Shown: in pieces, positions 3,731-21,258 of the stretch
Position numbering within the stretch: the first letter of the stretch is position 1
Layout of the letters: every line of letters starts with the position of its first letter
From: a virus
Reading direction: 5' to 3' (one strand)
Length of the DNA: 21,427 nt
IMG/VR virus record: IMGVR_UViG_3300025151_003262
Span: 1-21,427 of that record
Made by a program: the position numbers and the translations under genes
The notes under the pieces: model-generated
What the model was told of the DNA's origin: nothing
Seen by the model: the letters and a program-made list of their open reading frames with translations, nothing else
Database searches by the model: none

Positions 3731-6496
3731 ATGGGAAAACAACTTTTAAGTATCCCTAGCTTTACCGCTGGGGAGCTTTCCTCTTCTATGGAGGGAAGAA
3801 CAGATTTTGCAAAATACTTTAATGGTGCAACGAATATTGAAAACTTTGTGGTTATGCCACATGGACCAATAACAAGACGACCAGGAACTTATTTTGTATC
3901 TGAAATAAAAACATCTGCAAATAAAACAAGACTTATTCCTTTTACATTTTCAACTGAACAAACTTACATTTTAGAATTTGGCGATCAATACATTCGTTTC
4001 TTTAAAGATAACGGTCAAATTGTAGAGGCTAATAAAACTATTACTGGAATAACGCAAGCTAATCCAGCTGTAGTTACATCTAGCTCACATGGTTATAATA
4101 ATGGAGATTTTGTAACTATTTCATCTGTTGTAGGAATGACAGAAGTAAATGGTAAAACTTTTAAAGTAGCAGACAAAACTACTAATACTTTTGAATTACA
4201 AGATGTTGATGGTAACGATATAAACTCTTCTGGTTATACTGCTTATTCATCCGCTGGTGTAGCTAATAGAATTTATCAAATCACAACTAACTATACGACA
4301 GCACAACTATTTGATTTAAAATTTGCACAGTCTGCTGACGTTATGTATATAACGCATCCTAGCCATGAAGCATCAAAACTATCCAGAACGGGTCATACTT
4401 CCTGGACACTTTCAGAAGTAGACTTTGGCGAAACTGGACCCTACATGGATGCCAATACTACAGCGACAACTTTAACTCCAGCATCCTCTGGAACTGGAAC
4501 GGGTGTTAATATAACTGCTAGCTCAACTACAGGAATAAATGGTGGTAATGGTTGGCAAACAACAGATGTTGGAAGAATTTTAAAATTTAATAGTGGCGAG
4601 GCTGTAATTACAGCAAGAACAAATACCACAGTTGTAGTCTGCACAATTACTAAAGCATTTGCTAATACTGATGCGACAGCAGCTTTTCAACTTGGTTCTT
4701 TTTCAGATACCACGGGTCATCCATCGGTAGTTACTTTCTTTGAACAAAGATTAGTTTTTGCTGGAACATCCGATCAACCACAAACAATGTTTTTTTCAAA
4801 GTCTGGAGACTATGAGAATATGACAACTGGAACTGATGCTGACGATGCTATGGTATATACTATTGCATCCAACCAGGTTAATGCAATTAAAGCTATGAAG
4901 GCAACAAGAACTTTAATTGTAATGACAACGGGTGGAGAATATGCTGTCTCTGCTGGAACCGCATCTGCAATCACACCGACAAATATTTCAATCGTTAAAC
5001 AATCTAATTATGGTTCAGCTGGAGTAGATGCCTTATCTATTGGTAACGCAACTATCTTTTTACAAAGAGCAAAAAGAAAAATGAGAGAACTTGCTTATAA
5101 CTTTGACACCGATGGTTATGTTGCTCCAGATTTAACTATTCTTGCAGAACATATAACTGATAGTGGTATTACCCAAATGGATTACCAACAAGAACCATAC
5201 TCAATAGTTTGGGGAACAAGAACTGACGGAATATTAGCTGGTTTAACTTATAACAGATTAGAAAATGTTGTTGCTTGGCATAGACACATTATAGGCGGTA
5301 AGTCTGACACTACAAAAAATATTATTCAACAATCAATTAGTTTCACTTCAAACTCTTCAAATGTAAATACTACAGCTAATACAATTACTATTTCATCACA
5401 CGGTTTATCAACAGCTGATCCAGTTTATTATTATGCTGGCTCTAATGCTATTGGTGGATTAAATAATTCAACATTATATTATGCTATCGCAACCGATAGT
5501 AATACAATAAAACTAGCGACAACATCATCGAATGCTACCGCTGGAACGGCTATATCTTTTACTTCAGCTCCTAGTTCAGACACAACTCAATACATTTATC
5601 AAGGTGTTAATATTTCTTCTAATTTTATTTATTCAGCTTCTCATGGTTTTGTTACTGGTGATATTTTTTATTATGATAATACTGGAACAGCTATTGGTGG
5701 TTTATCTGAAAATACAAAATATTATATTGAAAAAATTGATAACAACCAATTTAAACTTTATTCAGATAAAAATTTATCTACCGTTGTTAGTTTAACTTCA
5801 GCTCACACATCAGAGCAAACTGATAATATTTTAACTAATGCTAAAGTAGAAAGTGTTGCTATAATTGATGGTGATACAGACGAAGATCAAGTTTGGGTTA
5901 TAGTTCAAAGATGGATAAATGGTGCTGTAAGAAGATATGTAGAATATTTTACTCCATTTGATTTTAACAAAGATGTTACTGCATTTCATTATTTAGATAG
6001 TGGATTAAGTTATGTTGGCGATGAAACATCCACACTTACTGGATTAGATCATTTAGAAGGAGAAGTTGTGGATATTATTGGTGAAGGTGCTGCACAAACT
6101 AATAAAACAGTTTCAAGCGGCAGTATAACAATAGATAACGCAACTGAACAAGCTAAAGTTGGTTTACTGTATACATCTGATTTACAAACAATGAGATTAG
6201 ATGAAGGTTATACAGAAACAACTCAAACTAAAACAAAAAGAATTTATGATTTATCTGTTAGGTTTCAAGATACCGTTGGAGCTAAAGTTGGACCCAACGC
6301 AGCAAACTTAACATCAATAGATTTTAGAGCTAGTGGATCTCCAATGAACTTACCTATTCCATTGTTTACTGGAGATAAATCTGTTGAATTTGATACAGGT
6401 TATGGCACGGAAGGTTTAGTTTACGTTCAACAACCACAGGCTCTACCAATGACTATCCTTGGTATTTATCCAAGATTGGAGACAGAGAGTGTCTAA
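3731..6496 (+). CDS. Tail tubular protein B (gp12-like nozzle protein) with inserted beta repeats
   Basis: This is a 921-residue protein, longer than T7 gp12 (about 790). The opening IPSFTAGELSSSMEGRTDF (residues 7-25), with RRPGTYFVSE near 49, is the hallmark start of podovirus nozzle proteins. A conserved segment at about 329-364 (FFEQRLVFAGTSDQPQTMFF) supports this. Three copies of a small beta module carrying the S-S-H-G-x-x-x-G-D/P pattern are visible: residues about 104-182, 546-614 and 627-691. The latter two are tandem. Modules of this look are often labelled FCCH-like in phage annotations. The nozzle forms the hexameric tip of the short tail through which DNA passes and to which fibres attach; the inserted modules may be fibre-docking or surface decorations, an inference. 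No clear Shine-Dalgarno precedes the start, so it may be coupled to the gene before it. Confidence 0.85.
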   Translation: MGKQLLSIPSFTAGELSSSMEGRTDFAKYFNGATNIENFVVMPHGPITRRPGTYFVSEIKTSANKTRLIPFTFSTEQTYILEFGDQYIRFFKDNGQIVEANKTITGITQANPAVVTSSSHGYNNGDFVTISSVVGMTEVNGKTFKVADKTTNTFELQDVDGNDINSSGYTAYSSAGVANRIYQITTNYTTAQLFDLKFAQSADVMYITHPSHEASKLSRTGHTSWTLSEVDFGETGPYMDANTTATTLTPASSGTGTGVNITASSTTGINGGNGWQTTDVGRILKFNSGEAVITARTNTTVVVCTITKAFANTDATAAFQLGSFSDTTGHPSVVTFFEQRLVFAGTSDQPQTMFFSKSGDYENMTTGTDADDAMVYTIASNQVNAIKAMKATRTLIVMTTGGEYAVSAGTASAITPTNISIVKQSNYGSAGVDALSIGNATIFLQRAKRKMRELAYNFDTDGYVAPDLTILAEHITDSGITQMDYQQEPYSIVWGTRTDGILAGLTYNRLENVVAWHRHIIGGKSDTTKNIIQQSISFTSNSSNVNTTANTITISSHGLSTADPVYYYAGSNAIGGLNNSTLYYAIATDSNTIKLATTSSNATAGTAISFTSAPSSDTTQYIYQGVNISSNFIYSASHGFVTGDIFYYDNTGTAIGGLSENTKYYIEKIDNNQFKLYSDKNLSTVVSLTSAHTSEQTDNILTNAKVESVAIIDGDTDEDQVWVIVQRWINGAVRRYVEYFTPFDFNKDVTAFHYLDSGLSYVGDETSTLTGLDHLEGEVVDIIGEGAAQTNKTVSSGSITIDNATEQAKVGLLYTSDLQTMRLDEGYTETTQTKTKRIYDLSVRFQDTVGAKVGPNAANLTSIDFRASGSPMNLPIPLFTGDKSVEFDTGYGTEGLVYVQQPQALPMTILGIYPRLETESV
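5366..5803 (+). repeat. Tandem SSHG beta-module repeats in the nozzle gene
   Basis: Two adjacent copies encode residues about 546-614 and 627-691 of the nozzle protein. The shared pattern is I.SSHG / SASHG, then a G/A-D-x-x-Y-Y turn, then AIGGL, a YY(A/I)-I-x-x-(D/N)-x-N stretch, then KL and a closing S(F/L)TSA. Nucleotide identity is low, so the duplication is old. A third related copy lies upstream at residues about 104-182. Confidence 0.65.
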
Positions 6497-6941
6497 TATT
6501 AAATTTGTACCTTTTGAAAACGAACACGCACATTATATTTTAGATCAAGGTTTAAATAGTGAATTATTAGAAATGAAACCAGAGCATAGAAAATATGCTT
6601 ATTATCTAAAAGAAGTTGGAATGTCGTTTACAGGGTTATTGAATAACAAACCTATAGCGGCTGGAGGGATCTTTCCCCTCTGGGATGGCTGTGCCGAGGG
6701 GTGGGTCTTGGCTACAAAAGAAATAAATAACTATCCAATAACATTTGCAAAGGTTATTAAGCAAAGAACTGACATGATGTTAAAAAATAATTTTATTAGA
6801 AGATTACAAACATCAGTTAAAGCCGATTGTTTAGTTGCGTTAAGATTTGCAAAATTTTTAGGATTGAAAGAAGAAGGTTTAATGAAGGGTTATGGACCAG
6901 ATGGTTCTGACTTTTATAGATTTGCGAGGATTATAAAATGA
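6489..6941 (+). CDS. gp13-like internal protein with GNAT (acetyltransferase) fold
   Basis: The best start is GTG at 6489, because GGAGA (6478-6482) lies 6 nt before it. The frame stays open upstream to a TTG at 6459, but that lies deep inside the nozzle gene. From GTG the protein has 150 residues and overlaps the nozzle stop by 8 nt. It resembles the family of T7 gp13, an acetyltransferase-like protein needed for virion core assembly. The centre reads AAGGIFPLWDGCAEGWVLAT, and the C-terminal half fits the last GNAT strands (VALRFAKFLGLKEEGLMKGY). I do not see a canonical R/QxxGxG/A acetyl-CoA loop, so enzymatic activity is doubtful. Position just before the gp14-, gp15- and gp16-like genes matches T7. 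A local GC-rich patch covers 6658-6712. Confidence 0.75.
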   Translation: MSNIKFVPFENEHAHYILDQGLNSELLEMKPEHRKYAYYLKEVGMSFTGLLNNKPIAAGGIFPLWDGCAEGWVLATKEINNYPITFAKVIKQRTDMMLKNNFIRRLQTSVKADCLVALRFAKFLGLKEEGLMKGYGPDGSDFYRFARIIK

Positions 6942-7393
6942 GTTTTTTTGGAGATATATTTGCTGGTAGAGCTGAAAAAAAAGCATCTGAATATAATGCA
7001 AAGATTATAGAAAATAATAAAAAAATTAAAGAGCAAGAGGCAGTTCAGATTATGTCTGTTCATAATAATTTTACTCTTCCAAAATTTGATAAGACAGTTG
7101 AACAAATACAAGGCGAAACTAGAGTTGCGTATCTTTCTAGTGGAGCTGCCTTAGAAGGTACTGTGCTTGATACTCTTTATGCACAAGCATTAGAATTAGA
7201 AACAGATAGAGATATTTTAACTTTTAATGCAGAAAATGCAAAAGCAACAAAAGAAAATGAGGCAATTATGATGCAAGCAGACGCAGATCTTCAAAGATGG
7301 CGAGGATCAGTTGCCAAAAAAGCTAGTTACTTTGCAGCGGGTCAAAGTTTATTATCAACAGCAACATCATTAAAAACAGCGGGGATGTACTAA
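6938..7393 (+). CDS. Internal virion (core/ejection) protein, gp14-like
   Basis: This is a 151-residue, mostly helical protein. It opens MSFFGDIFAGRAEKKASEYN, the aromatic/glycine start followed by a charged helix that is usual for gp14-type core proteins. It continues with an AYLSSGAALEGTVLDTLYAQ segment (about 61-80), a marker of this family in podoviruses (S/G-rich turn, then helix). It ends with a small-residue-rich hydrophobic stretch (AAGQSLLSTATSLKTAGMY), as expected for a protein that inserts into or crosses the outer membrane after ejection. In T7, gp14 is ejected first and helps form the trans-envelope channel. The start overlaps the gp13-like gene by 4 nt (ATGA) and the stop overlaps the next gene by 1 nt, so this is a tightly coupled set. 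Confidence 0.7.
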   Translation: MSFFGDIFAGRAEKKASEYNAKIIENNKKIKEQEAVQIMSVHNNFTLPKFDKTVEQIQGETRVAYLSSGAALEGTVLDTLYAQALELETDRDILTFNAENAKATKENEAIMMQADADLQRWRGSVAKKASYFAAGQSLLSTATSLKTAGMY

Positions 7394-9489
7394 TGGCAAT
7401 AAAATTATACAAATCACAATTAGAACCAACAACTAAATCTTCAAATGTAGAAAACAAAGCATTTGCAAGTATGCAAGAGGCTGGATCTATTGGTAGAGCT
7501 TTTAAAGGTATGGTTCAATCTGGAGAAAAACTTTATATAAAACACCAAGATTATAAAACCGATAATGAAATTTTAGAAAAATCTAAAGAGGTTATGAATG
7601 GTACTGATAGTTACGAAGGTTTGAGTTCAATAGAATTAAAAGCTAAACAAATGAGCGACCCAGATAAAGCTCTTCAATACTACAATACAGAATGGCAAAA
7701 AATATTTGATAGTGTCAATGGATCTTTGTCTAACAAAATGGCGCAAAGAAAATTTAAAGATTTTATGACTAAACAAAATATTAAAGATGGTAATTCAATT
7801 AAATTATCAGCAACAAGTAAAATGATTGAAAATCTCCGTGCCAATAAATTAGATGAAATAAATACCAAAGTTAAATCTATAATTTGGGGTAATGAATTAG
7901 AAAGTAAAATAGCAACGAATGAATTAGAGGCAATATATAAAGATGCAAAAACAGTAGAAATTTTTGGTGATAAATTAGATGATATGATTAGATCTACTCA
8001 AAGAGATATTGCTTTTTATGGATATAAAAATGTACCGCTAGATCAAAGAGACAAAGCATTAGAAGAAGCAAAAAAAGATCCAAGATTACAAATAGATGAT
8101 GTTCAAAAATTAATAACTTCTTTTAATGTTAAAAAAACATCCATAGATCATAAGAATAGATCTAATGTTACTACTATGGTAGAAAATGTTAAAAAAGGAT
8201 TTCCTTTAAGTCAAGCTGATTATGAGAATGCTGTTAATATTGCAATCAATACAGAAGATCAAATAACTTTAAATAAATTAGAACAACTTGCAAAAGATGC
8301 AAATATTTACGCTCAGTTAGCAACCATGAGTGTTGGCGAAATTGAAAATAGAAAAAATATTTTACTTGAATTTCAAAAAACAAAGGGAGCTTTAAGTTTA
8401 GATGATACAAATAATTTAAGAATTACAACTGAATATTTATCAAAATTAACAAGTGATTTAAACAAAGATCAACTAATGACAGCCAATGAAAGAAATATTG
8501 GTGTATCTATTCAAGATATTGGATTTGAAAAATTATTAACAGGAGAATTAAAGCCAGAAGATTTTACAGAAAAAGTAAAACAAAGAATTGGAAATGCTTA
8601 TGCCGTAGCAAATCATTATAAAAGGGATGTTGTTTTTTTTACTAATAATGAAAAAAAAGCAATCCAAGCAGCATATCAACAAGCAGATACACCAGATCAA
8701 ATCATTAAATTAACAACGGCATTAGTTCAATCTTTTGGTATGGAAAGCGATAAGGCTTTTGCACAATTTAGTAAAGAAGATAGTTTTTTTGCACATATTG
8801 GAGGATTGGTTATGCAAACAGGCGGAGCTGGAGATAATGTTAAGTTAGCTGTTGAAGGATTTTTATTAATGCAAGGTGAAGAAAATAAAAAAATATATTC
8901 TGTTAAAAACGAAGATAGAGCAAGTGTTGTCGATGAATACAGCTCTGCTTTTTTAATGAACCGAGATACTCAAAATTCAACAATAGAGGCTGCAAATTAT
9001 ATTTATGCAGCTCAATTAAAAAATGCTGGTAAATCTGGTTTTGATGATTTTGACACATTTGCTTATGAGAAAGCATTTAAAATGGCAGCGGGTGCAACTT
9101 ATGTAGCTGGAGTTATGGGATCTAAAAATTTTGATGCTTTTTACGGTGGCTTTGATGAACATAACGATAATAAAGTTTATATTCCAGGATGGTTACAAGA
9201 AGGTAAATTTGATGATGTTGTTAAAACATTAAAAGATCATCCAGAATTAATAGATATGGGTTCAACCAATGGTAAGGCTCCTGTTGATATTAATGGAGAA
9301 CTAATAGATGTATTTGCGGGTGATGCTCCATATTTTATTAGTGTAGGTGATGGAGTTTATTTAATAGGTGTTGGTGATAATCCCAAAGATGTTACTGGTG
9401 AACCAGAGTATTTATTAAATAGTGATGGTGGATATTTCAAACTTGATCTCAATAAAATTAAAGGGGATCTACAACCTTATATACAATAA
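7393..9489 (+). CDS. Internal virion (core/ejection) protein, gp15-like
   Basis: This is a 698-residue protein, close in length to T7 gp15 (about 750). It is highly helical and rich in Lys/Asn/Glu, with no signal peptide, zinc motif or catalytic signature that I can see. The start (MAIKLYKSQLEPTTKSSNVE) and a VPLDQRD..LEEAKKDPRLQ motif near residues 215-240 resemble gp15-type proteins of marine podoviruses. The C-terminal ~90 residues turn more beta-like (APYFISVGDGVYLIGVGDNP). In T7, gp15 and gp16 form the periplasmic and inner-membrane parts of the DNA ejection tube. The gene sits between the gp14-like and gp16-like genes and is linked by 1-nt TAATG overlaps on both sides. T8 and A8 runs at about 8633-8657 do not interrupt the frame. 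The identification leans on gene order. Confidence 0.65.
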   Translation: MAIKLYKSQLEPTTKSSNVENKAFASMQEAGSIGRAFKGMVQSGEKLYIKHQDYKTDNEILEKSKEVMNGTDSYEGLSSIELKAKQMSDPDKALQYYNTEWQKIFDSVNGSLSNKMAQRKFKDFMTKQNIKDGNSIKLSATSKMIENLRANKLDEINTKVKSIIWGNELESKIATNELEAIYKDAKTVEIFGDKLDDMIRSTQRDIAFYGYKNVPLDQRDKALEEAKKDPRLQIDDVQKLITSFNVKKTSIDHKNRSNVTTMVENVKKGFPLSQADYENAVNIAINTEDQITLNKLEQLAKDANIYAQLATMSVGEIENRKNILLEFQKTKGALSLDDTNNLRITTEYLSKLTSDLNKDQLMTANERNIGVSIQDIGFEKLLTGELKPEDFTEKVKQRIGNAYAVANHYKRDVVFFTNNEKKAIQAAYQQADTPDQIIKLTTALVQSFGMESDKAFAQFSKEDSFFAHIGGLVMQTGGAGDNVKLAVEGFLLMQGEENKKIYSVKNEDRASVVDEYSSAFLMNRDTQNSTIEAANYIYAAQLKNAGKSGFDDFDTFAYEKAFKMAAGATYVAGVMGSKNFDAFYGGFDEHNDNKVYIPGWLQEGKFDDVVKTLKDHPELIDMGSTNGKAPVDINGELIDVFAGDAPYFISVGDGVYLIGVGDNPKDVTGEPEYLLNSDGGYFKLDLNKIKGDLQPYIQ

Positions 9490-11999
9490 TGAGTATATTT
9501 TACGATACAAAAAACACAGAAACAATACAACCATACGAAAGTTTAGCCAAAGGCAAAAGAACAGATTTTAGAGATAACTTTTCATCTGCTTGGGATGCTT
9601 TTACAAAAACTGAAATGATCTTATCTGAAATAAACAATTTAGATGAGGCTTATGGTAATATGAATGAAATATTAACTAAAGCGGGTCATTTTTTTATATC
9701 TCCAACTGATCCAAGTAATTATATGGTGGATGATACAGAAGTACCACCTTCAAGAAGATCTTTAGAAGAAGCATATTGGAAACAAATTGCTGAAGTTTCT
9801 GCACAAGATGAAAATTTAAAAAATCTTTTAGTTGAAGCTGGTTTAGATACCCAAGAAAATATGCACAAACTTATTGCAGAACAAAGTCATAGTGCTTGGG
9901 AAAATTTTGCAGATATTTCTGAAAGAGCTACAACAATGGGTAAAGTCGGTGGATTTACTGGTATAGCCTCTGGAGCATTTACAGATCCAGTAATGCTTGC
10001 AACACTACCAATATCTATGATGTATTCTGTTCCAGTTAATTTTAGTAAAGCTGCTTGGAAAGTTGCAAAAATAGAAACAGTATTAGCTGGTATTGCCGAG
10101 ACTGCTATACAATTAAAATCTCAACCTTATAGAAAAGAACTTGGTTTTGAAGATGCTGGTTTAGAAACTGGATTAAAAAATATCGCAATGGTTTCTCTTG
10201 CAGCTGGTACAATTTCACCAGCTTTGTTAGGAGTATTTAAAGCATTTGGTAAAGGTATTGAGGTTGGTAAAAAACATTTATTTAAACTATCTGATGAAGA
10301 GTTAAATACTGTTTCAAAAGAAATGGGAGAAATTAATCCTAAATTTAAAGATGAAACTTTAGATAATCATAAATTACCAGAAAAAGATAATCCTTTTCCA
10401 GACAATAGAGCTGGCAGAACAGAACATAACGAAAGATTAAACGATACTTTAAAAGCAATTCAAAATGGAGAAGATGTAAATTTAGCAGCTCCTAGAAACC
10501 AAACAGTTCCAGATAATTTAGTTCCTCCAGGAAAAATTAAACCTGGAGAATTTTTTGATATTTTTGATAATGATGGAAATATTGTTAATGTTCAAGCTGT
10601 TGCAATAAGTAAAAAAACAGGAAGTATTAAAATAAAATTAGCCGATGGTTCTGAAAGAGTTATATCTATAGATCCAAAATCTTCTGCTTTTCAAAGTATT
10701 AGAAATCCTAATTATGTTATTAGATCTGCTGATTTAAATGCACAAGGTAAGACAGTTTCTCAATTAAAAAAAAAAGAATTAACACAATTAAGAAAAAAAT
10801 TACAAGATAGAAAAAATCAAATGGAAACTGAAGGCACGACTAATCAAGGTGCTTATAGAGATACATTGGAAGATTTAAACTCTATAGATTTTAACATCAA
10901 TAAAGCTACAAACGAAACAAACTCTCCAAATATTAATAAAGCTAATTTTAATAAAAATGAAAGTAAGTTAGCTGAAGATTTAGAAAATGTTAAAGATTTT
11001 GATGTACCAAGTGAAGCAGCTTACAGAAATCAAGCCTTAAATAATGAAGTATCTATGTTTGACACATCTACTTCTTCTTCCATTAAAAGTGGAGCCGAGG
11101 CTGGTGCTGCTGCCAAAACATCGCCAACAGTATTATCTGATAAACTCCAAGATTTAACTAAAGGATCCCAAAAAACAGACGCAACTCCAGTATCAGTTTT
11201 AGCCAAAGCTAATACTGTTCCACCACTATTTCGTGGTTCTAAAACTAATAAAGTTGGTGATAAAAGTGCCATAACTAAAAAGGTAATATATCATAAATCC
11301 GATGATTTCAATACGATCTACAATACATTATCTAAAAAAATTGAGGATGTTAAGAAAGAATTACAACCTATAGCAACAAAATATAATGGCGATTTAAAGG
11401 CAAGAGTAAAAGAGTTAAAAGAGTTAAATAAAAAAACAAATAAAGGAATAAAAGCAGAGCATATTTCTGATTATTTGGGTGCTAGAATATCAACAGATAC
11501 AATATTAGAGGCTAAACTAGCAGTAGCAGAAATTAATAAAAAATATAAAATTATTGGTGGTATTGATGATTTTTTAACTGATGCTGGCAGAGCTGGTAGT
11601 GAGTATAGAGCTATTCATATCCAGGCTTTAACTAATGATGGTTTTACATTTGAAATACAAATTAGAGTAAAAGATTTAGACCCATTAACAGAACAATCTC
11701 ACACTATTTATAAAAAGAAAACATGGGCGGAAAAAGAATACACAGACGCAGAATATAATAAAATTGTAAAAGAAGAGGCGGAAATAAATAAAAAATTAAA
11801 AGCTAAATATTTTGAAATAAAAGATAAAGAATTTATTAAATTAAATAGCGATGATCCTTTAGATTTTCCAATACCTATCGGTCAAAGAGTAGATGATGCT
11901 ACAGGCGAAAAAGTAGCTCTAACTAAAACAGCAAGAGAATTATTTGAAGAAGAAGGCAAAACTAAAACAATGTTAGAAAGATTGAAAGATTGCGTATGA
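9489..11999 (+). CDS. Ejection-type internal protein with C-terminal RelA/SpoT-like domain
   Basis: This is an 836-residue protein in the slot of the N-terminal half of gp16. Residues 1-260 are a helical region with hydrophobic Gly/Ala-rich segments (GGFTGIASGAFTDPVMLATL, about 154-173; NIAMVSLAAGTISPALLGVF, about 231-250) that could meet a membrane. Residues about 270-590 are a polar linker with a small beta island near 350-400. Residues about 590-745 look like a RelA/SpoT nucleotidyltransferase domain: R639-V-K641 and K649/K652 (ATP side), D661-Y-L-G-A-R666-I (metal), E705-Y706-R-A-I-H710, E722-I-Q724-I-R726, and H738-T-I-Y-K742. The family makes (p)ppGpp, (p)ppApp or pyrophosphorylates tRNA. 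The canonical G before Y706 is E here. No lytic transglycosylase motif is seen. The start overlaps the gp15-like stop by 1 nt and the stop overlaps the next gene by 4 nt. Activity and delivery into the host are inference. Confidence 0.7.
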   Translation: MSIFYDTKNTETIQPYESLAKGKRTDFRDNFSSAWDAFTKTEMILSEINNLDEAYGNMNEILTKAGHFFISPTDPSNYMVDDTEVPPSRRSLEEAYWKQIAEVSAQDENLKNLLVEAGLDTQENMHKLIAEQSHSAWENFADISERATTMGKVGGFTGIASGAFTDPVMLATLPISMMYSVPVNFSKAAWKVAKIETVLAGIAETAIQLKSQPYRKELGFEDAGLETGLKNIAMVSLAAGTISPALLGVFKAFGKGIEVGKKHLFKLSDEELNTVSKEMGEINPKFKDETLDNHKLPEKDNPFPDNRAGRTEHNERLNDTLKAIQNGEDVNLAAPRNQTVPDNLVPPGKIKPGEFFDIFDNDGNIVNVQAVAISKKTGSIKIKLADGSERVISIDPKSSAFQSIRNPNYVIRSADLNAQGKTVSQLKKKELTQLRKKLQDRKNQMETEGTTNQGAYRDTLEDLNSIDFNINKATNETNSPNINKANFNKNESKLAEDLENVKDFDVPSEAAYRNQALNNEVSMFDTSTSSSIKSGAEAGAAAKTSPTVLSDKLQDLTKGSQKTDATPVSVLAKANTVPPLFRGSKTNKVGDKSAITKKVIYHKSDDFNTIYNTLSKKIEDVKKELQPIATKYNGDLKARVKELKELNKKTNKGIKAEHISDYLGARISTDTILEAKLAVAEINKKYKIIGGIDDFLTDAGRAGSEYRAIHIQALTNDGFTFEIQIRVKDLDPLTEQSHTIYKKKTWAEKEYTDAEYNKIVKEEAEINKKLKAKYFEIKDKEFIKLNSDDPLDFPIPIGQRVDDATGEKVALTKTARELFEEEGKTKTMLERLKDCV
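10766..10775 (+). repeat. A10 homopolymer run upstream of the RelA/SpoT-like domain
   Basis: Ten consecutive A bases encode part of LKKKE at about residues 426-429 of the 836-residue protein. A slip of one base backward reaches a TAG at 10808-10810, and a slip forward reaches TAA at once. Polymerase or ribosome slippage would therefore make a protein of about 430-440 residues without the nucleotidyltransferase domain. Whether slippage occurs cannot be told from sequence. Confidence 0.5.
11256..11730 (+). other. RelA/SpoT-like nucleotidyltransferase domain coding segment
   Basis: This segment encodes residues about 590-747 of the protein at 9489. Its order of motifs (RVK...K, D-x-x-G-x-R, x-Y-R-x-x-H, E-x-Q-x-R, H-x-x-Y-K) and their spacing match the synthetase domain of RelA/SpoT homologues and small alarmone synthetases. 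There is no HD hydrolase domain, TGS or ACT domain, so this is a synthetase-only form. The domain is fused to a structural protein instead of being free-standing. Confidence 0.7.
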
Positions 12000-14533
12000 G
12001 TAGTTTTAAACAATGTATTATTAATGGTTTTAAAGAAGGTTTAATTAGTGCTGAACAAGCTGATAAATTAAATAAAAATTTAGACGAAGTTACCGAATTT
12101 TATCAATTTAGAAAAGGGTTAAGCAAATCAGAGGCGGAAAGAGCAGCTGCTAAAAAAACATACGATGAATTAAAAATAGAAGAAGCTAACAAATTAAGAA
12201 TTACCTTAGCACAAAAAGCAAAGATTGATGAAATAACTACTTTATTTGCAACCTATAGAAATGCAAATGGTGAAATAGACATGGCTAATGCTTATAGATC
12301 TCTTTATGCCGTAGATCAACACGCTTTAACTCCAAATATAGAAAATCAAATTATTAATGAGGGAAATAAAGCAAATAAATTTATGGTAAATGTTTTAGAG
12401 CAAATGAGATATAAATTAGGTGGTAGGCAAACCAAACTTCAAAAAGCTACTTTAAGATTAGTGGTTAAAGAGCTAATGGGAGAAAATACTGGAAATGTAA
12501 ATGCTAAACAATTAGCGGATGCCTGGAGACAAACAGCTGAACATTTAAGAAAAAGAGCCAATAGTTTTGGTATGAAAATATTATCAAGAAAAGATTGGGG
12601 ATTACCACAATTACACGACACATTATTAGTTAAATCCGTTTCTAAAGAAGATTGGATTGATTTTATTTTACCTAAATTAGATTTAGATAAAATGGTTAAT
12701 GAAACAACTGGTTTACCTTTTAATGATAAAACAATTAGACAAGCATTAAGTGGAGTTTATGATAATATTTCAACAGAAGGAATGGCAACCTTTAAACCAG
12801 GAACATCTGCTTATGGTAGAGCTTTACATAATAGAAGATTAGATCATAGATTTTTAGCTTTTAAAAGTGCTGACGATTGGATGGAATACCAAACAAGATT
12901 TGGTTCTCCAGATCCATTTAAAACAATGCTAGAGCATATCAACGGTATGTCGAGAGATATTGCTATGCTTAAAATACTTGGACCAAACCCAGACGCAACG
13001 CATACTTGGGCGTTAGGTATGATTAAAAAACAAATGAAAATTGATGCAGCTGCGGAGGCACAAGGTAAATTTAAAAGAAAAAAATTAAATAAATTTAGAA
13101 ATGAAGAAGATAGAACTAATTGGATTATAGAAAATATAAATAATTTATACGCACACCATAAAGGAACTTTACACAAACCTATTGATGGATTTTTTGGAAG
13201 AACTTTTGCGGCTTTAAGGCAGTTATTAACTTCTGCACAATTAGGAGGTGCTGCAATTATGGCAATTACTGATTTTCATTGGTCGAGAATGACTGCTAAA
13301 TTTAACGGTTTACCAGCAACTAAAGCTAATGCAACAGCCGTAAAATTACTAGCTGAAGGGATTAAAAAAGATAAAGCTCTAGCAAGAACAGCAATTAGAC
13401 TTGGATTAATAACTGAAAGTTGGAATACTATTGCTGGTGTTCAAACTAGATACTTAAATGATGTAGAGGCTCCAGTTTGGTCTAAAAGAGTTTCTGATTT
13501 TGTATTAAGAGGATCTGGATTATCACACATAACTCAATCTGGTAAATGGGCGTTTGGTATGACAGTAATGGGAGAGCTTGCAGAACAAAGCGGAAAATCA
13601 TTTAATAAATTAGATCCAAAATTATCAGCACAATTAAAAAAATATGGCATAGGAGCTGATGAATGGGAAATTATTAGAACAACAAAATTATATGATGCTG
13701 GTGCAGATGAACCAACAATGATTGGTAAAGGTGCTACTTTTTTAAGACCAGACGATATTCATGCTAGAGCTGATTTAGATGAGGCAACAAGAGAATTTTT
13801 AACTACAAGGTTAATGACTTATGTTACTAATGAAACTAACTTTGCTGTACCATCATCATCTGCAAAAGGTAGAGTAACTTTAGCTGGATCTTCTCAACCA
13901 GGTACACTTAAAGGCGAATTAATGAACTCTGTTTTAATGTATAAAAACTTTCCAATAACATTAGGAATGACACATTTGAATAGAGGTTTTCAACAAAAAG
14001 GATTAATGGGTAAAGCTAAATATTTAGTACCTATGATTATTGGTGGTGCTGTTATGGGTTCTTTAGCTTATGAAATAAAACAAGTTGCAGCTGGTAAAAA
14101 ACCAACTTCTCCAGAAAATATGAATACTAGATATTGGATGAATGCTATGGTTTATGGTGGTGGATTAGGAATATTTGGTGATTTCTTATTTTCAGATCAA
14201 AATAGATATGGTGGATCTTTTAGTAAAACATTAGCTGGACCAGTAGCATCTTTTATTGGGGATGCTATCAATTTAACATTTGGTAATGCAGCTCAACTTT
14301 TAACTGGAGAAAAAACTAATGCTGGTAAAGAGCTTGCAGCATTTATTCAAAGATATACTCCTGGATCATCCCTTTGGTATACAAGATTAGCTTATGAAAG
14401 ACTTATAATGGATACACTTGAAAAGTTAATAAATCCTAATTTTGACAAAGATAATAGAAGAAATATTAAAAAATTAAAGTCTCGAACTGGACAAGAATAT
14501 TGGTGGAAACCAGGAGAAATAACACCAAATTAA
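11996..14533 (+). CDS. Large internal virion (ejection) protein, gp16 C-terminal-like
   Basis: The start chosen is ATG 11996, which overlaps the preceding stop as ATGA; a TTG two codons upstream is open but less likely. The protein has 845 residues. The N-terminal third is charged and helical (MSSFKQCIINGFKEGLISAE start). The middle has a hydrophobic segment at about 401-428 (ALRQLLTSAQLGGAAIMAIT). Further Gly/Ala-rich hydrophobic stretches lie near 678-697 (VPMIIGGAVMGSLAYEIKQV) and 715-735 (NAMVYGGGLGIFGDFLFS). The last 60 residues (SSLWYTRLAYERLIMDTLEK ... GQEYWWKPGE) are a strongly conserved ending of large core proteins in marine podoviruses. T7 gp16 (about 1,320 residues) spans the inner membrane during ejection; here the role appears shared with the upstream 836-residue protein. 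No catalytic motif is recognised. Confidence 0.75.
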   Translation: MSSFKQCIINGFKEGLISAEQADKLNKNLDEVTEFYQFRKGLSKSEAERAAAKKTYDELKIEEANKLRITLAQKAKIDEITTLFATYRNANGEIDMANAYRSLYAVDQHALTPNIENQIINEGNKANKFMVNVLEQMRYKLGGRQTKLQKATLRLVVKELMGENTGNVNAKQLADAWRQTAEHLRKRANSFGMKILSRKDWGLPQLHDTLLVKSVSKEDWIDFILPKLDLDKMVNETTGLPFNDKTIRQALSGVYDNISTEGMATFKPGTSAYGRALHNRRLDHRFLAFKSADDWMEYQTRFGSPDPFKTMLEHINGMSRDIAMLKILGPNPDATHTWALGMIKKQMKIDAAAEAQGKFKRKKLNKFRNEEDRTNWIIENINNLYAHHKGTLHKPIDGFFGRTFAALRQLLTSAQLGGAAIMAITDFHWSRMTAKFNGLPATKANATAVKLLAEGIKKDKALARTAIRLGLITESWNTIAGVQTRYLNDVEAPVWSKRVSDFVLRGSGLSHITQSGKWAFGMTVMGELAEQSGKSFNKLDPKLSAQLKKYGIGADEWEIIRTTKLYDAGADEPTMIGKGATFLRPDDIHARADLDEATREFLTTRLMTYVTNETNFAVPSSSAKGRVTLAGSSQPGTLKGELMNSVLMYKNFPITLGMTHLNRGFQQKGLMGKAKYLVPMIIGGAVMGSLAYEIKQVAAGKKPTSPENMNTRYWMNAMVYGGGLGIFGDFLFSDQNRYGGSFSKTLAGPVASFIGDAINLTFGNAAQLLTGEKTNAGKELAAFIQRYTPGSSLWYTRLAYERLIMDTLEKLINPNFDKDNRRNIKKLKSRTGQEYWWKPGEITPN

Positions 14534-17218: not shown

Positions 17219-17836
17219 ATGGCTTTCATAGGTAAAAAACCAACAGACGCACCTTTAACTTCAAGTGATGTAGCAGATGGAATTATTACTAATGCTAAAC
17301 TAGCACAAGATATAATTTCTGGAGATACTGCTCTTGCAGTTGCTCCAGCAGACACAGATGAATTTTTAGTATCTGATGCTGGAACATTAAAAAGAATAGA
17401 TTACAGTTTAATTAAAGCTGCTAATTCTGACGCATTTTTAGCCATCAAAACAAGTAATCAAAGTATTAGCGATAGTACAACTACAGCATTGACTTATGAT
17501 ACTGAAAGATATGACACAGGAAGTAATTTTGCATCAAATGCTTATACTGTTCCTAGTGATGGTTATTATTATTTATATACAAAATTAACGATTAATGGAA
17601 CACCATCTGCTGGAAGATTTGGATGTTCAATTATGCAAGGTAGCACAACTCTTGCAGATTGCCAAAATGGAAGCGGTGGAGCAGCATATAATACTATGGG
17701 TGTAAGTGTAATAGTTAATTTATCTGCTAGTGATGTAATTGATATAGATTGCAGACAAACAACTGGAAGTACGCAAGAGGTTTATGGTGCATCTTGGAAC
17801 TCAACATATTTCGGTGGTTTTAAATTAAATATATAG
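17219..17836 (+). CDS. C1q-like tail fibre tip / receptor-binding protein 1
   Basis: This is a 205-residue protein. The N-terminus MAFIGKKPTDAPLTSSDVAD is a short docking-type segment. Residues about 25-67 (TNAKLAQDIISGDTAL through SDAGTLKRIDYSLI) are a module shared with the protein at 18181. Residues about 85-205 fit a C1q/TNF-like trimeric jelly roll (YTVPSDGYYYLYTKLTING, LSASDVIDIDC, and a closing GGFKLNI strand). Phage proteins with this fold usually bind host surface structures. Its repeat in the next cassette points to diversification of host recognition. The receptor-binding role is inferred from fold and context. The start is one base after the preceding stop, with GGAG about 10 nt upstream. 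Confidence 0.7.
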   Translation: MAFIGKKPTDAPLTSSDVADGIITNAKLAQDIISGDTALAVAPADTDEFLVSDAGTLKRIDYSLIKAANSDAFLAIKTSNQSISDSTTTALTYDTERYDTGSNFASNAYTVPSDGYYYLYTKLTINGTPSAGRFGCSIMQGSTTLADCQNGSGGAAYNTMGVSVIVNLSASDVIDIDCRQTTGSTQEVYGASWNSTYFGGFKLNI

Positions 17837-17844
17837 GATAAATT

Positions 17845-18177
17845 ATGGCAACATTAAAAACAAAAATTAAATTATATGCAGAAGCAAATAGTGTGGCTAA
17901 TGTAGATTTTGATAAACAAGTTATACTTAAAGATGATGGGGATGGAGTTGTTTATATTGATAAATGGAATATTGATAGTCTTGCACAACCAACTGATGAA
18001 CAACTAGCAACTTATGAAGGTTCCGCACAAACAGAAGAAAATAATAATGTTGTTATTGCTAATCGTAAATCTGAATATGGAACAACTGAACATCAAATAG
18101 AAAACATAATTGAAAATGGTTTAGAAGCAGAACAAACCAGAGTTCAAGCAATTAAAGATAAATATCCAAAGGAATAA
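17845..18177 (+). CDS. Fibre assembly chaperone-like protein, copy A
   Basis: This is a 110-residue acidic, mostly helical protein. It has a short beta start (MATLKTKIKLYAEANSVANV), a central W-N-x-x-x-L-A-x-P-T-D-E-Q-L-A-T-Y motif (about residues 43-60) and a helical C-terminus with R/K-x-x-Y-G and IKDKYPKE. The 'PTDEQL' sequence after a short strand resembles small phage tail/fibre assembly proteins of the XkdW type, but the match is to the general pattern only. A close paralogue lies at 19037, each directly after a C1q-like protein. A chaperone or co-assembly partner for that protein is the simplest reading. The stop is 3 nt from the next ATG, and AAGGAA within its last codons can serve as that gene's ribosome site. 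Confidence 0.55.
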   Translation: MATLKTKIKLYAEANSVANVDFDKQVILKDDGDGVVYIDKWNIDSLAQPTDEQLATYEGSAQTEENNNVVIANRKSEYGTTEHQIENIIENGLEAEQTRVQAIKDKYPKE

Positions 18178-18180
18178 TCA

Positions 18181-19035
18181 ATGTATATAGGAAAAGAACC
18201 AATAGTAGGAAACTTTCAAAAGTGTGATGCTATTACTGTCGTTAATGGACAAGCAGCATACACATTACAAGTAAGCTCAACAAATGTAGTTCCAGAAAGT
18301 GCAAATCACATGCTGGTTTCACTTAATGGAATTTTACAAGCACCAGTAACTTCATTTACTGTATCTGGTTCAACACTTACTTTTGCATCAAACTTAGCAA
18401 CAGGTGATGTTATAGACTTTGTAATCTTGTTAGGTAATGTTCTTGATCTTGGAACTCCAAGCGATGGAACTGTAACCAATGCAAAATTAGCACAGGATAT
18501 TATATCTGGAGAAACTGCTTTAACAAGTGAGCCAGCATCAACTGATGAACTACTTCTTTCGGATGCTGGTACTTTAAAGAGAATTGATTATAGTTTAATA
18601 ACTAATACTCCAGCTTTTCAAGCATACCTTTCAGCAGACCAAACTGTGACAAGTGGTACAGAAACAAAAATTCAACTTAACACAGAAGATTTTGATACTG
18701 ATAGTGCCTATGATAATTCTACTAACTATAGATTTACACCTCAAACTGCAGGTAAATATTTTGTTTATGCAACAGTTAGAGGAAATGCAGGTTCTTCAGC
18801 TTTAGATTTAGAAATGACAGCAATTTATAAAAATGGTTCTTCATTTATTGAAAATCAAATTGATTTTAGAGCTAATGATGCACTATTAGCAGGTATAACA
18901 GTTACCGCTTTTATTGATATGAATGGTAGTTCAGATTATTTAGAATGTTATGCAAGATGTTTAGGCGGAACAACCATAAAAGGTTCTTCAACAAGACCAT
19001 CAGTATTTGGAGCATTTAAAATAACAGGAGCATAA
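18181..19035 (+). CDS. C1q-like tail fibre tip / receptor-binding protein 2
   Basis: This is a 284-residue paralogue of the protein at 17219, with an extra N-terminal domain of about 90 residues (KCDAITVVNGQAAYTLQVSS, MLVSLNGILQAP, DVIDFVILLGNVLD), a common attachment domain in marine phage fibre proteins. The shared linker KLAQDIISGETAL ... SDAGTLKRIDYSLI occupies about residues 98-142. The C-terminal ~140 residues again fit a C1q-like jelly roll (RFTPQTAGKYFVYATVRGNA; FGAFKITGA end) but differ extensively from copy 1, as expected if the tip has diversified for another receptor. The start ATG is 3 nt after the preceding stop with AAGGAA upstream. Trimeric assembly and receptor binding are inference. 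Confidence 0.7.
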   Translation: MYIGKEPIVGNFQKCDAITVVNGQAAYTLQVSSTNVVPESANHMLVSLNGILQAPVTSFTVSGSTLTFASNLATGDVIDFVILLGNVLDLGTPSDGTVTNAKLAQDIISGETALTSEPASTDELLLSDAGTLKRIDYSLITNTPAFQAYLSADQTVTSGTETKIQLNTEDFDTDSAYDNSTNYRFTPQTAGKYFVYATVRGNAGSSALDLEMTAIYKNGSSFIENQIDFRANDALLAGITVTAFIDMNGSSDYLECYARCLGGTTIKGSSTRPSVFGAFKITGA

Positions 19036-19036
19036 T

Positions 19037-19369
19037 ATGGCAATTTTAAAAACAAGAGTAAAAAAATATTTAGAAGCTAACTCAAAAACTTGGGAAGCTG
19101 AACAAGATAATATTAAACTTCAAAACGATAGTGATGGTAATGGAGATTATATTCATACATGGAATGTTTCTGGTCTTGCAAAACCAACCGATGAACAATT
19201 AGCAACTTATAATTCTGCTGCTACAACAGAAGAAAATAATAATGTTATAAGATCAACTAGAAGATCAGCTTATGGCGATATTGGAGATCAGCTAGACGAA
19301 ATTTATAAAGATATAGATGCTTGGAAAGCAAGAATAAAATCAATTAAAGACGCAAATCCGAAGGAGTAA
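19037..19369 (+). CDS. Fibre assembly chaperone-like protein, copy B
   Basis: This is a 110-residue paralogue of the protein at 17845. It has the same length, the same PTDEQLATY...TEENNNV core and the same PKE end, with a start MAILKTRVKKYLEANSKTWE. The C-terminal half differs: YGDIGDQLDEIYKDIDAWKA is the form seen more widely in marine phages and predicts a clear helix pair. Being paired with a different C1q-like protein suggests that each chaperone-like protein serves its own upstream neighbour. The last codons contain AAGGAG (19361-19366), the ribosome site for a 20-codon ORF that starts at 19373. The start follows the preceding stop by one base. Confidence 0.6.
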   Translation: MAILKTRVKKYLEANSKTWEAEQDNIKLQNDSDGNGDYIHTWNVSGLAKPTDEQLATYNSAATTEENNNVIRSTRRSAYGDIGDQLDEIYKDIDAWKARIKSIKDANPKE

Positions 19370-19372
19370 TCA

Positions 19373-19435
19373 ATGGCTTTAGCTTCACTTCGTTTCACTA
19401 AAGAAATGAGAGGTAACTCATGGCAATCAAAGTAG
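19373..19435 (+). CDS. 20-codon mini-ORF, possible remnant of a third fibre gene
   Basis: The ATG at 19373 opens MALASLRFTKEMRGNSWQSK and stops at TAG 19433-19435. It has a good Shine-Dalgarno (AAGGAG, 6 nt spacing), better than that of several real genes here. It sits exactly where the next fibre gene starts after the equivalent gene in cassette A. It overlaps the first codons of the gene at 19420 in another frame. It may be a leader that couples translation into that gene, or the stub left when a third fibre gene was lost by recombination. I do not recognise the peptide. Confidence 0.4.
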   Translation: MALASLRFTKEMRGNSWQSK

Positions 19436-20025
19436 CCAATAATCAATCCTTGACTGCGATTACAGCTTTACCAGCAGCAGTTTCTGGTGGTGCTATGACT
19501 TTATTAGAAACGCAGACTGCATCAAGTTCAGCTACAATTTCTTTTACAAGTAATATTGATAGTACCTATGATGAGTATGTGTTTAAGTTTATAGATATGC
19601 ACCCAGAAGAAGATAATAAAAAATTTACTTTTCAAGTAGATACAGGAACTAACACAAATTATAATCAAACTATTACATCTACTGCTTTTTCTTCAGCTAA
19701 TAGTGAGCCTGATGATTATACACTTTTAGCTTATAATGCTGCAGAAGATCAAGCACAAGGTACAGGTTTTCAACCACTAATAGTTGGCAATGGAAATGGC
19801 AATGACGAAAGTTTTTCAGGATATTTACATTTATTTAATCCCAGTAGTGCTACATATGTGAAACATTTTATATCAAGATGTCATACTTATCATTTTGAAA
19901 ATATAGCATTTTCTTTATTTACATCAGGATATGTTAATACAACAACAGCTCTTACAAGAGTTCAGTTCAAAATGTCATCAGGAGATATTGATGCAGGAGT
20001 AATAAAATTATATGGCATTAGTTAA
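19420..20025 (+). CDS. Tip-type virion protein paralogue 1 of 3
   Basis: This is a 201-residue predicted beta-rich protein. Its plan is shared with the next two genes: a short N-terminal segment (MAIKVANNQSLTAITALP), then GGAMTLLETQTASSSATISF (about residues 23-42), a strand region with E-Y-V-F-K-F-I-D-M-H-P (about 52-62), a variable middle (about 65-120), then FNPSSATYVKHF, a variable stretch, TTALTRVQFKMSSGDIDAG and a closing KLYGIS. Families of this form are common in marine phages near fibre genes; a surface or fibre-tip role is inferred. The start has GAGAGG 6 nt upstream and lies inside the mini-ORF at 19373. Its stop overlaps the next gene by 14 nt. Confidence 0.65.
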   Translation: MAIKVANNQSLTAITALPAAVSGGAMTLLETQTASSSATISFTSNIDSTYDEYVFKFIDMHPEEDNKKFTFQVDTGTNTNYNQTITSTAFSSANSEPDDYTLLAYNAAEDQAQGTGFQPLIVGNGNGNDESFSGYLHLFNPSSATYVKHFISRCHTYHFENIAFSLFTSGYVNTTTALTRVQFKMSSGDIDAGVIKLYGIS

Positions 20026-20632
20026 ATACAACAACAATTCTATAAGTGCTATTACAGCAGCTTCTAGCTTACCTACTGGTGCTATGACTTTGATTAAAGA
20101 ACAAACAGCATCTTCAAGTTCTACTATTAGCTTTGTTCATGGTACATCAGATGTAGTCTTGGATGGCACATATCCTATTTATTTATTTAAGTTTATTAAT
20201 ATTCATCCAGCAACAGATCAAAAAAAATTTATGTTTCAAGGCACAACAAATGGTAGTGATTTTAATACAACAATGACTACTACATGGCTTCAAACATATC
20301 ATGATGAAGCAGATAGTAGTACAAATTTATCTTATATAACTGGAGAAGATCAAGCACAAGGAACAGCTTTTCAATCTCTTTGTGAAGATTTAGGTAATGA
20401 TAACGATCAATGTTTTTCTGGCGAACTTTATCTTTTTTCGCCATCGTCAACTACTTACGTCAAACATTTTATGTCTGTTGGAAGTGAGGCATATTTTAGT
20501 AATTATAATAACTCAGCTAGAGTAGCTGGTTATTTCAACACAACTTCAGCTATTACTGGACTTCAGTTTAAAATGGAAAGTGGAGATGTAGATAGTGGCA
20601 CTTTCAAACTCTATGGAATTAAGGATAGTTAA
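20012..20632 (+). CDS. Tip-type virion protein paralogue 2 of 3
   Basis: This is a 206-residue protein with the blocks described for the gene at 19420. Here they read GAMTLIKEQTASSSSTISFV, GTSDVVLDGTYPIYLFKFIN, IHPATDQKKFMFQGT, SPSSTTYVKHFMSV and YFNTTSAITGLQFKMESGD, with a closing KLYGIKDS. The start ATG lies 14 nt inside the previous gene, so that the codons for YGIS and stop are read out of frame as MALVK. No independent Shine-Dalgarno is evident, and translation is probably by coupling. GTSDVVLD is shared with paralogue 3 and lacking in paralogue 1, so copies 2 and 3 diverged last. The function is not established; a receptor-contacting virion protein is plausible given the variable centre. 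Confidence 0.65.
   Translation: MALVKYNNNSISAITAASSLPTGAMTLIKEQTASSSSTISFVHGTSDVVLDGTYPIYLFKFINIHPATDQKKFMFQGTTNGSDFNTTMTTTWLQTYHDEADSSTNLSYITGEDQAQGTAFQSLCEDLGNDNDQCFSGELYLFSPSSTTYVKHFMSVGSEAYFSNYNNSARVAGYFNTTSAITGLQFKMESGDVDSGTFKLYGIKDS
20525..20550 (+). repeat. 26-bp identical block, copy in paralogue 2
   Basis: This block is identical over exactly 26 bases to 21157-21182 in paralogue 3 and encodes AGYFNTTSA. The surrounding sequence of the two genes differs clearly, also at synonymous sites, so exact identity here suggests recent gene conversion or a recombination anchor. Confidence 0.75.
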
Positions 20633-21258
20633 TGAGTATTGTTAAATTAAATAATAGAGGTGTAAGATCAGCTACAGCTTTTGGAAGCATATCAGCTTTA
20701 GGAGAAATGAGGTTTATTAAAAAACAAACTGCCTCATCATCTGCAACTATATCCTTTGTTGATGGAACAAGCGATGTTGTTTTGGATAATACTTACAAGG
20801 AATACTTATTTACTTTTAATAATATACATCCATCAGCAAATAGTGTTTTAAGTTTTCAAGGAAATGCTGCTGGAGGTAGTGGTTACAATGAAACTGTAAC
20901 CTGTACTCATTTTCAAAATTATCATGAAGAAGATGATGGAGGAACTGGATTTGGCTATGATACTGGAAGCGATCTAGCACAATCAACAAATTTTATACCT
21001 CTTACATCTGGATCAACAGCAATTAATAATGATGATTGTATGTGTGGAGAAATAATTTTGTTTAATCCATCATCAACTACATTCGTAAAACATTTTATAG
21101 CAAAATTTACAAATGTTAATTCAACAAGTGATCCAAATGCTAATTCAAGTTATGTTGCTGGTTATTTCAACACAACTTCAGCAATAGACGAAATACAATT
21201 TAAAATGAGTTCTGGCAACATAGACGCTGGAGATATTTGTTTATATGGAATTAATTAA
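20632..21258 (+). CDS. Tip-type virion protein paralogue 3 of 3
   Basis: This is a 208-residue protein with the family blocks MRFIKKQTASSSATISFVDG, GTSDVVLDNTYKEYLFTFNN, NPSSTTFVKHFIAKF, AGYFNTTSAIDEIQFKMSSG and a closing CLYGIN. The middle differs from paralogues 1 and 2, with more Gly/Ser and four Cys residues in all (TCTHF, DDCMCG and ICLYG), unlike its sisters. Whether these form disulphides cannot be said. The start overlaps the previous stop by 1 nt (TAATG). It is followed by AAGGAG and the next gene, a tail assembly chaperone start. The function is inferred from neighbourhood only. Confidence 0.65.
   Translation: MSIVKLNNRGVRSATAFGSISALGEMRFIKKQTASSSATISFVDGTSDVVLDNTYKEYLFTFNNIHPSANSVLSFQGNAAGGSGYNETVTCTHFQNYHEEDDGGTGFGYDTGSDLAQSTNFIPLTSGSTAINNDDCMCGEIILFNPSSTTFVKHFIAKFTNVNSTSDPNANSSYVAGYFNTTSAIDEIQFKMSSGNIDAGDICLYGIN
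21157..21182 (+). repeat. 26-bp identical block, copy in paralogue 3
   Basis: This is the partner of 20525-20550 and lies 632 bases downstream. Bases on both sides of the block differ between the two genes. Confidence 0.75.

What the first reader, a model, noticed from the sequence alone, without database searches (positions are those of the whole stretch)
11256..11730. RelA/SpoT-type nucleotidyltransferase domain fused to a phage ejection protein
Seen: residues about 590-745 of the protein at 9489 carry, in order, R639-V-K, K649/K652, D661-Y-L-G-A-R666, Y706-R-A-I-H710, E722-I-Q-I-R726 and H738-T-I-Y-K, the signature set of RelA/SpoT synthetase domains, with no hydrolase domain. Known: free-standing phage members exist (PhRel of mycobacteriophage Phrann), and a secreted member (Tas1 of P. 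aeruginosa) kills by making (p)ppApp. Inferred: here the domain sits in the gp15/gp16-like ejection region, so it could enter the cell with the first DNA and reset host nucleotide pools, translation or a competing phage before any phage gene is expressed. I know of no T7-like core protein described with this fusion.
Basis: partly seen in the sequence, partly recalled or inferred. Interest (0 to 1): 0.88.

Follow-up and report, generated by a model that had tools for sequence, protein, structure and literature searches.

The report
Phage ejection protein carrying alarmone-synthetase cargo
A phage carries an enzyme domain of the bacterial stress-signal (alarmone) maker family inside a protein that is probably injected with its DNA, and related phages carry a different toxin-like enzyme in the same slot, so the injection machinery may double as an effector delivery device; activity and delivery are untested, and similar phage proteins have been described before.

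Summary
Residues 639-744 of the 836-aa protein at 9489-11999 match Pfam RelA_SpoT (E 1e-9, above cut-off), a fold model matches CapRel/RelP/RelQ, and eleven synthetase motif residues are invariant in 21 of 22 family members; no hydrolase domain was found. The gene sits at the epsilon15 gp16 position in the internal-virion-protein block, so 'E15/pelagiphage-like' fits better than 'T7-like'. Its N-terminal scaffold is homologous to short, cargo-less proteins at the same position in Vibrio phages. Near relatives keep the synthetase domain (12 of 16 records tested); a sister clade has a zeta-toxin kinase in the same slot (4 of 16); none has both. Some members add a probable ART-PolyVal domain. The synthetase cassette has a different tree from the scaffold, so it appears to be exchanged. 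Larger RSH-bearing relatives encode integrases and are probably temperate. Best reading: an injected polyvalent-type effector that makes an alarmone-like product on entry; delivery, activity and substrate are inferred. Not new in kind: Iyer et al. 2017 described RelA/SpoT domains in phage polyvalent and MuF proteins, and Apk2 (MuF-RSH) makes (p)ppApp. New here are the E15-type ejection-protein scaffold and the RSH/zeta swap at one site.

The parts
9489..11999 (+). 836-aa ejection-type protein with RelA/SpoT synthetase domain; start overlaps the upstream stop (TAATG)
   Evidence: ORF; Pfam; junction sequence
9489..10493 (+). N-terminal scaffold (aa 1-335), shared with RSH- and zeta-bearing relatives and with short cargo-less Vibrio phage proteins at the same position
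   Evidence: alignment A2; HMM hits to ZCVPP1 7.5e-16, K300 1.1e-9, VP2 1.1e-5
9987..10046 (+). hydrophobic segment 1 (aa 167-186), candidate membrane-inserting stretch
   Evidence: hydropathy; role is inference
10173..10250 (+). hydrophobic segment 2 (aa 229-254), present in all complete relatives tested
   Evidence: hydropathy; role is inference
10494..11243 (+). variable region (aa 336-585): no convincing domain here; probable ART-PolyVal in L007, L008, L009, L011, L012; ParB/DdrB-like motif in L094-L103 and the zeta clade
11220..11864 (+). RSH cassette (aa 578-792)
   Evidence: alignments A1/A3; model
11403..11720 (+). RelA_SpoT Pfam core (aa 639-744) with R639, K641, K649, D661, R666, Y706, H710, E722
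11859..11996 (+). C-terminal tail (aa 791-836), kept where the zeta domain replaces RSH
   Evidence: 39% identity over 46 aa in L034 and L035; alignment
7393..9489 (+). upstream internal protein (phrog_992; E15 gp15 position)
6938..7393 (+). internal virion protein (phrog_418; E15 gp14 position)
6459..6941 (+). acetyltransferase-like protein (phrog_4177/phrog_308 internal virion protein; E15 gp13 position)
11990..14533 (+). downstream virion structural protein (phrog_684, E 7.7e-165; E15 gp17 homologue); the ATG at 11996 overlapping the RSH gene's stop (ATGA) is a likelier start than the TTG at 11990

Best explanation
The protein is an E15-type podovirus ejection (internal virion) protein that carries an exchangeable effector cassette, here a single-domain RelA/SpoT synthetase. 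Shown by sequence: RSH fold and motif residues, purifying selection, position in the virion gene block, homology of the scaffold to cargo-less phage proteins at the same position, and replacement of RSH by a zeta-toxin kinase in a sister clade. Inferred: the protein is packaged and ejected ahead of or with the DNA; the hydrophobic scaffold helps cross the inner membrane; the C-terminal cassette reaches the cytoplasm and transfers pyrophosphate from ATP to an acceptor, most likely a guanine or adenine nucleotide ((p)ppGpp or (p)ppApp), less likely the tRNA CCA end. A short pulse would slow host stable-RNA synthesis, translation and replication, or bias the lysis/lysogeny outcome, before any phage gene is expressed. 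For RelA/SpoT domains of phage polyvalent proteins, which this most resembles, the same kind of reading was proposed in 2017.
For: Pfam E 1e-9; fold match to CapRel/RelP/RelQ; eleven motif residues invariant in 21 of 22 at 50-72% identity to the window over the cassette; dN/dS 0.17-0.45 in RSH, below the scaffold in 7 of 8 pairs (dS high, so rough); synteny with E15 gp12-gp17 and with pelagiphage genes annotated as internal virion proteins; scaffold homology to cargo-less Vibrio phage proteins; 12 of 16 records with RSH, 4 of 16 with zeta, none with both; zeta domain E 1.8e-16; window RSH cassette in a different clade from its scaffold, AU p 7.6e-5. E15 is reported to eject internal proteins (PMC8954989).
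Against: No proteomics and no assay. The scaffold could not be modelled (pLDDT 58), and E15 gp16 itself did not match the scaffold profile significantly (E 3.7), so equivalence to E15 gp16 rests on position. Copy number per virion is unknown and may be low. R726 is Ser in 10 of 22 and L102 has lost two motif residues.
Confidence: 0.6

Rival explanations
1. Delivered toxin of the toxSAS type: the cassette pyrophosphorylates tRNA CCA ends or drains ATP into (p)ppApp, and serves to disable rivals or non-productive cells rather than to tune the host.
For: Best PDB fold match is the tRNA pyrophosphokinase CapRel; the phage-head fusion Apk2 makes only (p)ppApp (PMC12226406); the alternative cargo is a zeta toxin.
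Against: Fold rank does not predict the acceptor: RelP and RelQ score nearly as well. A tRNA or ATP toxin would hurt the injecting phage's own expression. No HD_4 hydrolase of the small-alarmone-hydrolase type in 16 related records, though other immunity types were not searched.
Confidence: 0.2
2. The enzyme acts in the producing cell or lysogen, as PhRel-like superinfection exclusion, and its place in a virion gene is incidental.
For: Larger relatives are probably temperate (integrase in 6 of 16 records); PhRel of Phrann acts this way (own knowledge).
Against: The gene overlaps its virion-gene neighbours at both ends (TAATG, ATGA), the arrangement of a late structural operon, and the domain is embedded between two conserved parts of the same protein.
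Confidence: 0.12
3. Catalytically dead domain kept for a structural or binding role in the ejectosome.
For: R726 variable; L102 altered at two motif residues.
Against: Eleven motif residues invariant at about 50% identity; cargo-less relatives show that the domain is not needed for ejection; replacement by an unrelated enzyme argues for an enzymatic rather than a structural part.
Confidence: 0.08

Closest known systems
Polyvalent proteins of phages (Iyer et al. 2017, PMC5512222)
   Same: Multidomain proteins predicted to be delivered with the DNA, including RelA/SpoT, ART and DdrB-like ParB domains; [quoted passage not shown]
   Different: Here the carrier is an E15-type ejection-protein scaffold; the window member has one recognised enzyme domain and no metallopeptidase motif; RSH and zeta alternate at one slot
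Apk2, MuF-RSH polymorphic toxins of temperate phages (PMC12226406)
   Same: RSH synthetase domain at the C-terminal side of a phage head-associated protein
   Different: Different carrier (MuF); Apk2 has adjacent immunity genes iapK and aph1, none recognised here. L066 is a Phage_min_cap2-RSH fusion of that kind
Epsilon15 gp16 and pelagiphage internal virion proteins (Skadi, HTVC035P, Greip)
   Same: Same position between the gp15-like and gp17-like genes
   Different: Shorter (about 420-635 aa), no recognised enzyme domain in those tested; sequence homology of the scaffold not shown for them
CapRel, RelP, RelQ and Tas1 synthetases
   Same: Fold (CapRel, RelP, RelQ; a viral protein named Tas1) and motif residues
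   Different: Free-standing, antitoxin-fused or secreted by other routes; substrate of the window domain unknown

Membership tests
RelA/SpoT synthetase domain (PF04607) | Significant profile match | tested here: met
   E 1e-9, 39.1 bits against 27
RelA/SpoT synthetase domain (PF04607) | Motif residues for ATP/Mg and acceptor binding (R-x-K, DxxGxR, YRxxH, ExQ) | tested here: met
   Invariant in 21 of 22
RelA/SpoT synthetase domain (PF04607) | Synthetase fold | tested here: met
   Foldseek best E 1.4e-7, 68 chains at E <= 1e-3; TM-scores moderate, up to 0.50 by query and 0.66 by target
RelA/SpoT synthetase domain (PF04607) | Pyrophosphotransferase activity | not testable with these tools
   Needs biochemistry
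Phage polyvalent proteins | Several domains of disparate activity in one polypeptide | tested here: inconclusive
   Window protein: scaffold plus RSH only. Relatives: RSH with sub-threshold ART-PolyVal (E 1e-6 on the isolated region of L007) or with a ParB-like motif
Phage polyvalent proteins | Delivered into the host with the DNA | not testable with these tools
   Inferred from gene position
Phage polyvalent proteins | Zincin-like metallopeptidase for processing (common, not universal) | tested here: not met
   No HExxH in the window protein; two relatives have a chance-like HEAGH near the N-terminus
Apk2 (MuF-RSH) toxins | MuF N-terminal domain | tested here: not met
   No MuF or minor-capsid match in the window protein; a minor-capsid domain is present in L066
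E15-type ejection proteins | Position between gp15- and gp17-like genes | tested here: met
E15-type ejection proteins | Sequence homology of the scaffold to a protein at that position | tested here: met
   Vibrio phages ZCVPP1, K300, VP2; no significant match for E15 gp16 itself
E15-type ejection proteins | Protein present in the virion and ejected | not testable with these tools
   Needs virion proteomics
toxSAS toxin-antitoxin modules | Adjacent antitoxin or hydrolase gene | tested here: inconclusive
   Neighbours are virion genes; no HD_4 in 16 related records; unknown antitoxins not excluded

The most novel reading that the evidence does not exclude
Short-tailed phages of this lineage use one ejectosome protein as a cartridge: a fixed membrane-crossing scaffold and tail with an interchangeable enzyme (alarmone synthetase, zeta kinase, probably ADP-ribosyltransferase) that acts in the cytoplasm during DNA entry, before phage transcription.
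Probability: 0.35. Interest if true: 0.75.

Novelty: new variant of a known kind. Interest (0 to 1): 0.55.

Why it matters
If the cassette is delivered and active, these phages manipulate host nucleotide signalling in the first moments of infection. The RSH/zeta swap on a shared scaffold and the cargo-less Vibrio phage versions give natural controls for testing what an ejected enzyme adds to infection. A contig binned as Pelagibacter with the same gene hints at a SAR11 host, whose very small cells would make a few enzyme copies count for more (inference).

Tried and rejected
N-terminal scaffold structure: model too poor to use (pLDDT 58), so no fold search was run on it. ParB assignment of the middle region in L094-L103 and the zeta clade: the motif (VVDGHQRLGLAKKL) is suggestive but Pfam gave no match, so left as a lead. 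Acceptor prediction from sequence: profile search favours long Rel enzymes, fold search CapRel and RelP, so not resolved. Sec10_N, RmuC and similar hits in the window protein are below cut-off and were set aside. T7-type RNA polymerase: no match in 16 related records, but the control was silent too, so no conclusion. Search of 50,697 phage records with the whole protein found only the scaffold of ZCVPP1; with the RSH part only four weak hits, E 0.2-1. Prior description of this exact fusion: the literature searches found none, in an open-licence library only. Habitat of the contigs was not looked up, so marine or other origin is not claimed from these data.

Full report
What is there. The protein at 9489-11999 has 836 residues. 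Residues 639-744 match Pfam RelA_SpoT at E 1e-9 with 39.1 bits against a curated cut-off of 27. Nothing else in the protein passes a Pfam cut-off, and no hydrolase domain is seen. In the PDB, single-sequence search gives only weak Rel hits (best E 0.0028), and a 14-sequence profile gives better ones (best E 3.9e-5). The AlphaFold model of residues 578-836 has mean pLDDT 78.6 and matches CapRel, RelP, RelQ and Rel.

Is it under selection. Related viral contigs L004-L026, where the gene is complete enough to tell, carry the same domain in the same gene at 48-99% identity. Across 22 family members, R639, K641, K649, D661, G664, R666, Y706, R707, H710, E722 and Q724 are the same in 21; L102 differs at two. 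K652 is not conserved, and R726 is Ser in 10. Pairwise dN/dS is 0.17-0.45 for the domain and 0.34-0.61 for the scaffold, lower for the domain in 7 of 8 pairs; dS is often near 1, so these are rough.

Where the gene lies. Upstream are capsid, tube A, tube B, an acetyltransferase-like protein, a gp14-like protein and a phrog_992 protein; downstream is a phrog_684 virion structural protein (E 7.7e-165) and then fibre-like genes. This is the order of epsilon15 gp12-gp17, with the RSH gene at the gp16 position. Pelagiphages Skadi-4, HTVC035P and Greip have the same order and annotate these genes as internal virion proteins. The gene overlaps both neighbours (TAATG at 9487; ATGA at 11996). A review reports that E15, like T7 and P22, ejects internal virion proteins (PMC8954989).

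Scaffold and cargo. A profile of the first 335 residues finds proteins at the same position in Vibrio phages ZCVPP1 (618 aa, E 7.5e-16), K300 (393 aa, 1.1e-9) and VP2 (392 aa, 1.1e-5). The K300 and VP2 proteins are little longer than the scaffold, and no enzyme domain was found in them. E15 gp16 itself gives no significant match. In the L027-L035 group the same scaffold (about 28% identity) and a 46-residue C-terminal tail (39% in L034 and L035) flank a zeta-toxin domain, E 1.8e-16 in L027. Of 16 records tested, 12 have RelA_SpoT, 4 have Zeta_toxin, none has both. L007, L008, L009, L011 and L012 have a sub-threshold ART-PolyVal match before the RSH domain, and L014 has one after it; on isolated regions these reach E 1e-6 (L007) and 1e-5 (L014), just under the curated cut-off. 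L094-L103 and the zeta clade share a ParB/DdrB-like motif that Pfam does not recognise. Other relatives carry peptidoglycan-acting domains at this gene position: SLT in BcepC6B and Glyco_hydro_108 in a faecal phage contig.

Cassette exchange. In the scaffold tree the window falls with L013, L011 and their kin, support 84/96. In the RSH tree it falls with L012, L008 and L024, support 95/99. Holding the scaffold clade together in the RSH data is rejected, AU p 7.6e-5. The zeta rows form one clade in the scaffold tree (94/86), consistent with a single swap; long branches make the deeper order unsure.

Lifestyle and host. A tyrosine integrase is found in 6 of 16 records, all of them RSH-bearing and over 31 kb. 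The window is a 21.4-kb fragment, so its own lifestyle is unknown. The only genome-collection hit for the scaffold is a 9.6-kb contig binned as Candidatus Pelagibacter; binning can mislead. GC is 33%. No HD_4 hydrolase was found in the 16 records.

How it most likely works. The protein is packaged, ejected at infection, and its C-terminal cassette reaches the cytoplasm and makes an alarmone-like product from ATP. Packaging, delivery and catalysis are inferred, not shown. The acceptor cannot be read from sequence: I put (p)ppGpp or (p)ppApp ahead of tRNA, because a tRNA toxin would also block the phage's own expression.

What is known. Iyer et al. 2017 described RelA/SpoT domains in phage polyvalent proteins of Spirochaetes and epsilon Proteobacteria and in MuF fusions, proposed an alarmone-like response, and described ART, DdrB-like ParB and zeta-like kinase domains in the same or related carriers (PMC5512222). 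Apk2, a MuF-RSH protein, makes (p)ppApp in vitro (PMC12226406). Exported alarmone synthetases with other carriers are also known (PMC12691689). In the viral structure library the RSH model matches phage proteins of about 980-1320 aa, some named for DdrB-like or ART-PolyVal domains. So the kind is known. What I did not find described is this E15-type scaffold, its cargo-less versions and the RSH/zeta alternation at one site; the literature library is limited to open licences.

Noticed in passing
L066:5483-7234: Phage minor capsid protein 2 domain fused to a weak RelA_SpoT domain; the C-terminal part also scores with NCBI models of XopAD-type proteins. Probably an Apk2-like MuF fusion.
   Followed up: partly
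L118:5524-6699: The cargo-less VP2 scaffold has a sub-threshold match to the MafB family (E 0.0013), which may reflect a shared membrane-active segment or chance.
   Followed up: no
window 3731-6496: The tube B-like tail protein carries an E1_FCCH domain match (E 2.2e-12, above cut-off).
   Followed up: no
window 17219-21258: Runs of similar small genes: two alternating pairs (17219/18181 and 17845/19037) and three in a row (19420, 20012, 20632), likely duplicated fibre or decoration genes.
   Followed up: no
window 7393-9489: No lytic transglycosylase or lysozyme domain recognised here, although the E15 gene at this position is annotated as one; the phage's peptidoglycan hydrolase is not evident in the proteins scanned.
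   Followed up: no
L005 (contig IMGVR_UViG_3300030098_000945): 69.7-kb contig with two integrases but one RSH gene, perhaps a composite assembly or two elements side by side.
   Followed up: no
L121 (Vibrio phage K300), 12116-13926: Nearby genes annotated as a 2-amino-adenylosuccinate synthetase type enzyme and a dATP triphosphohydrolase, suggesting 2-aminoadenine DNA in that relative.
   Followed up: no
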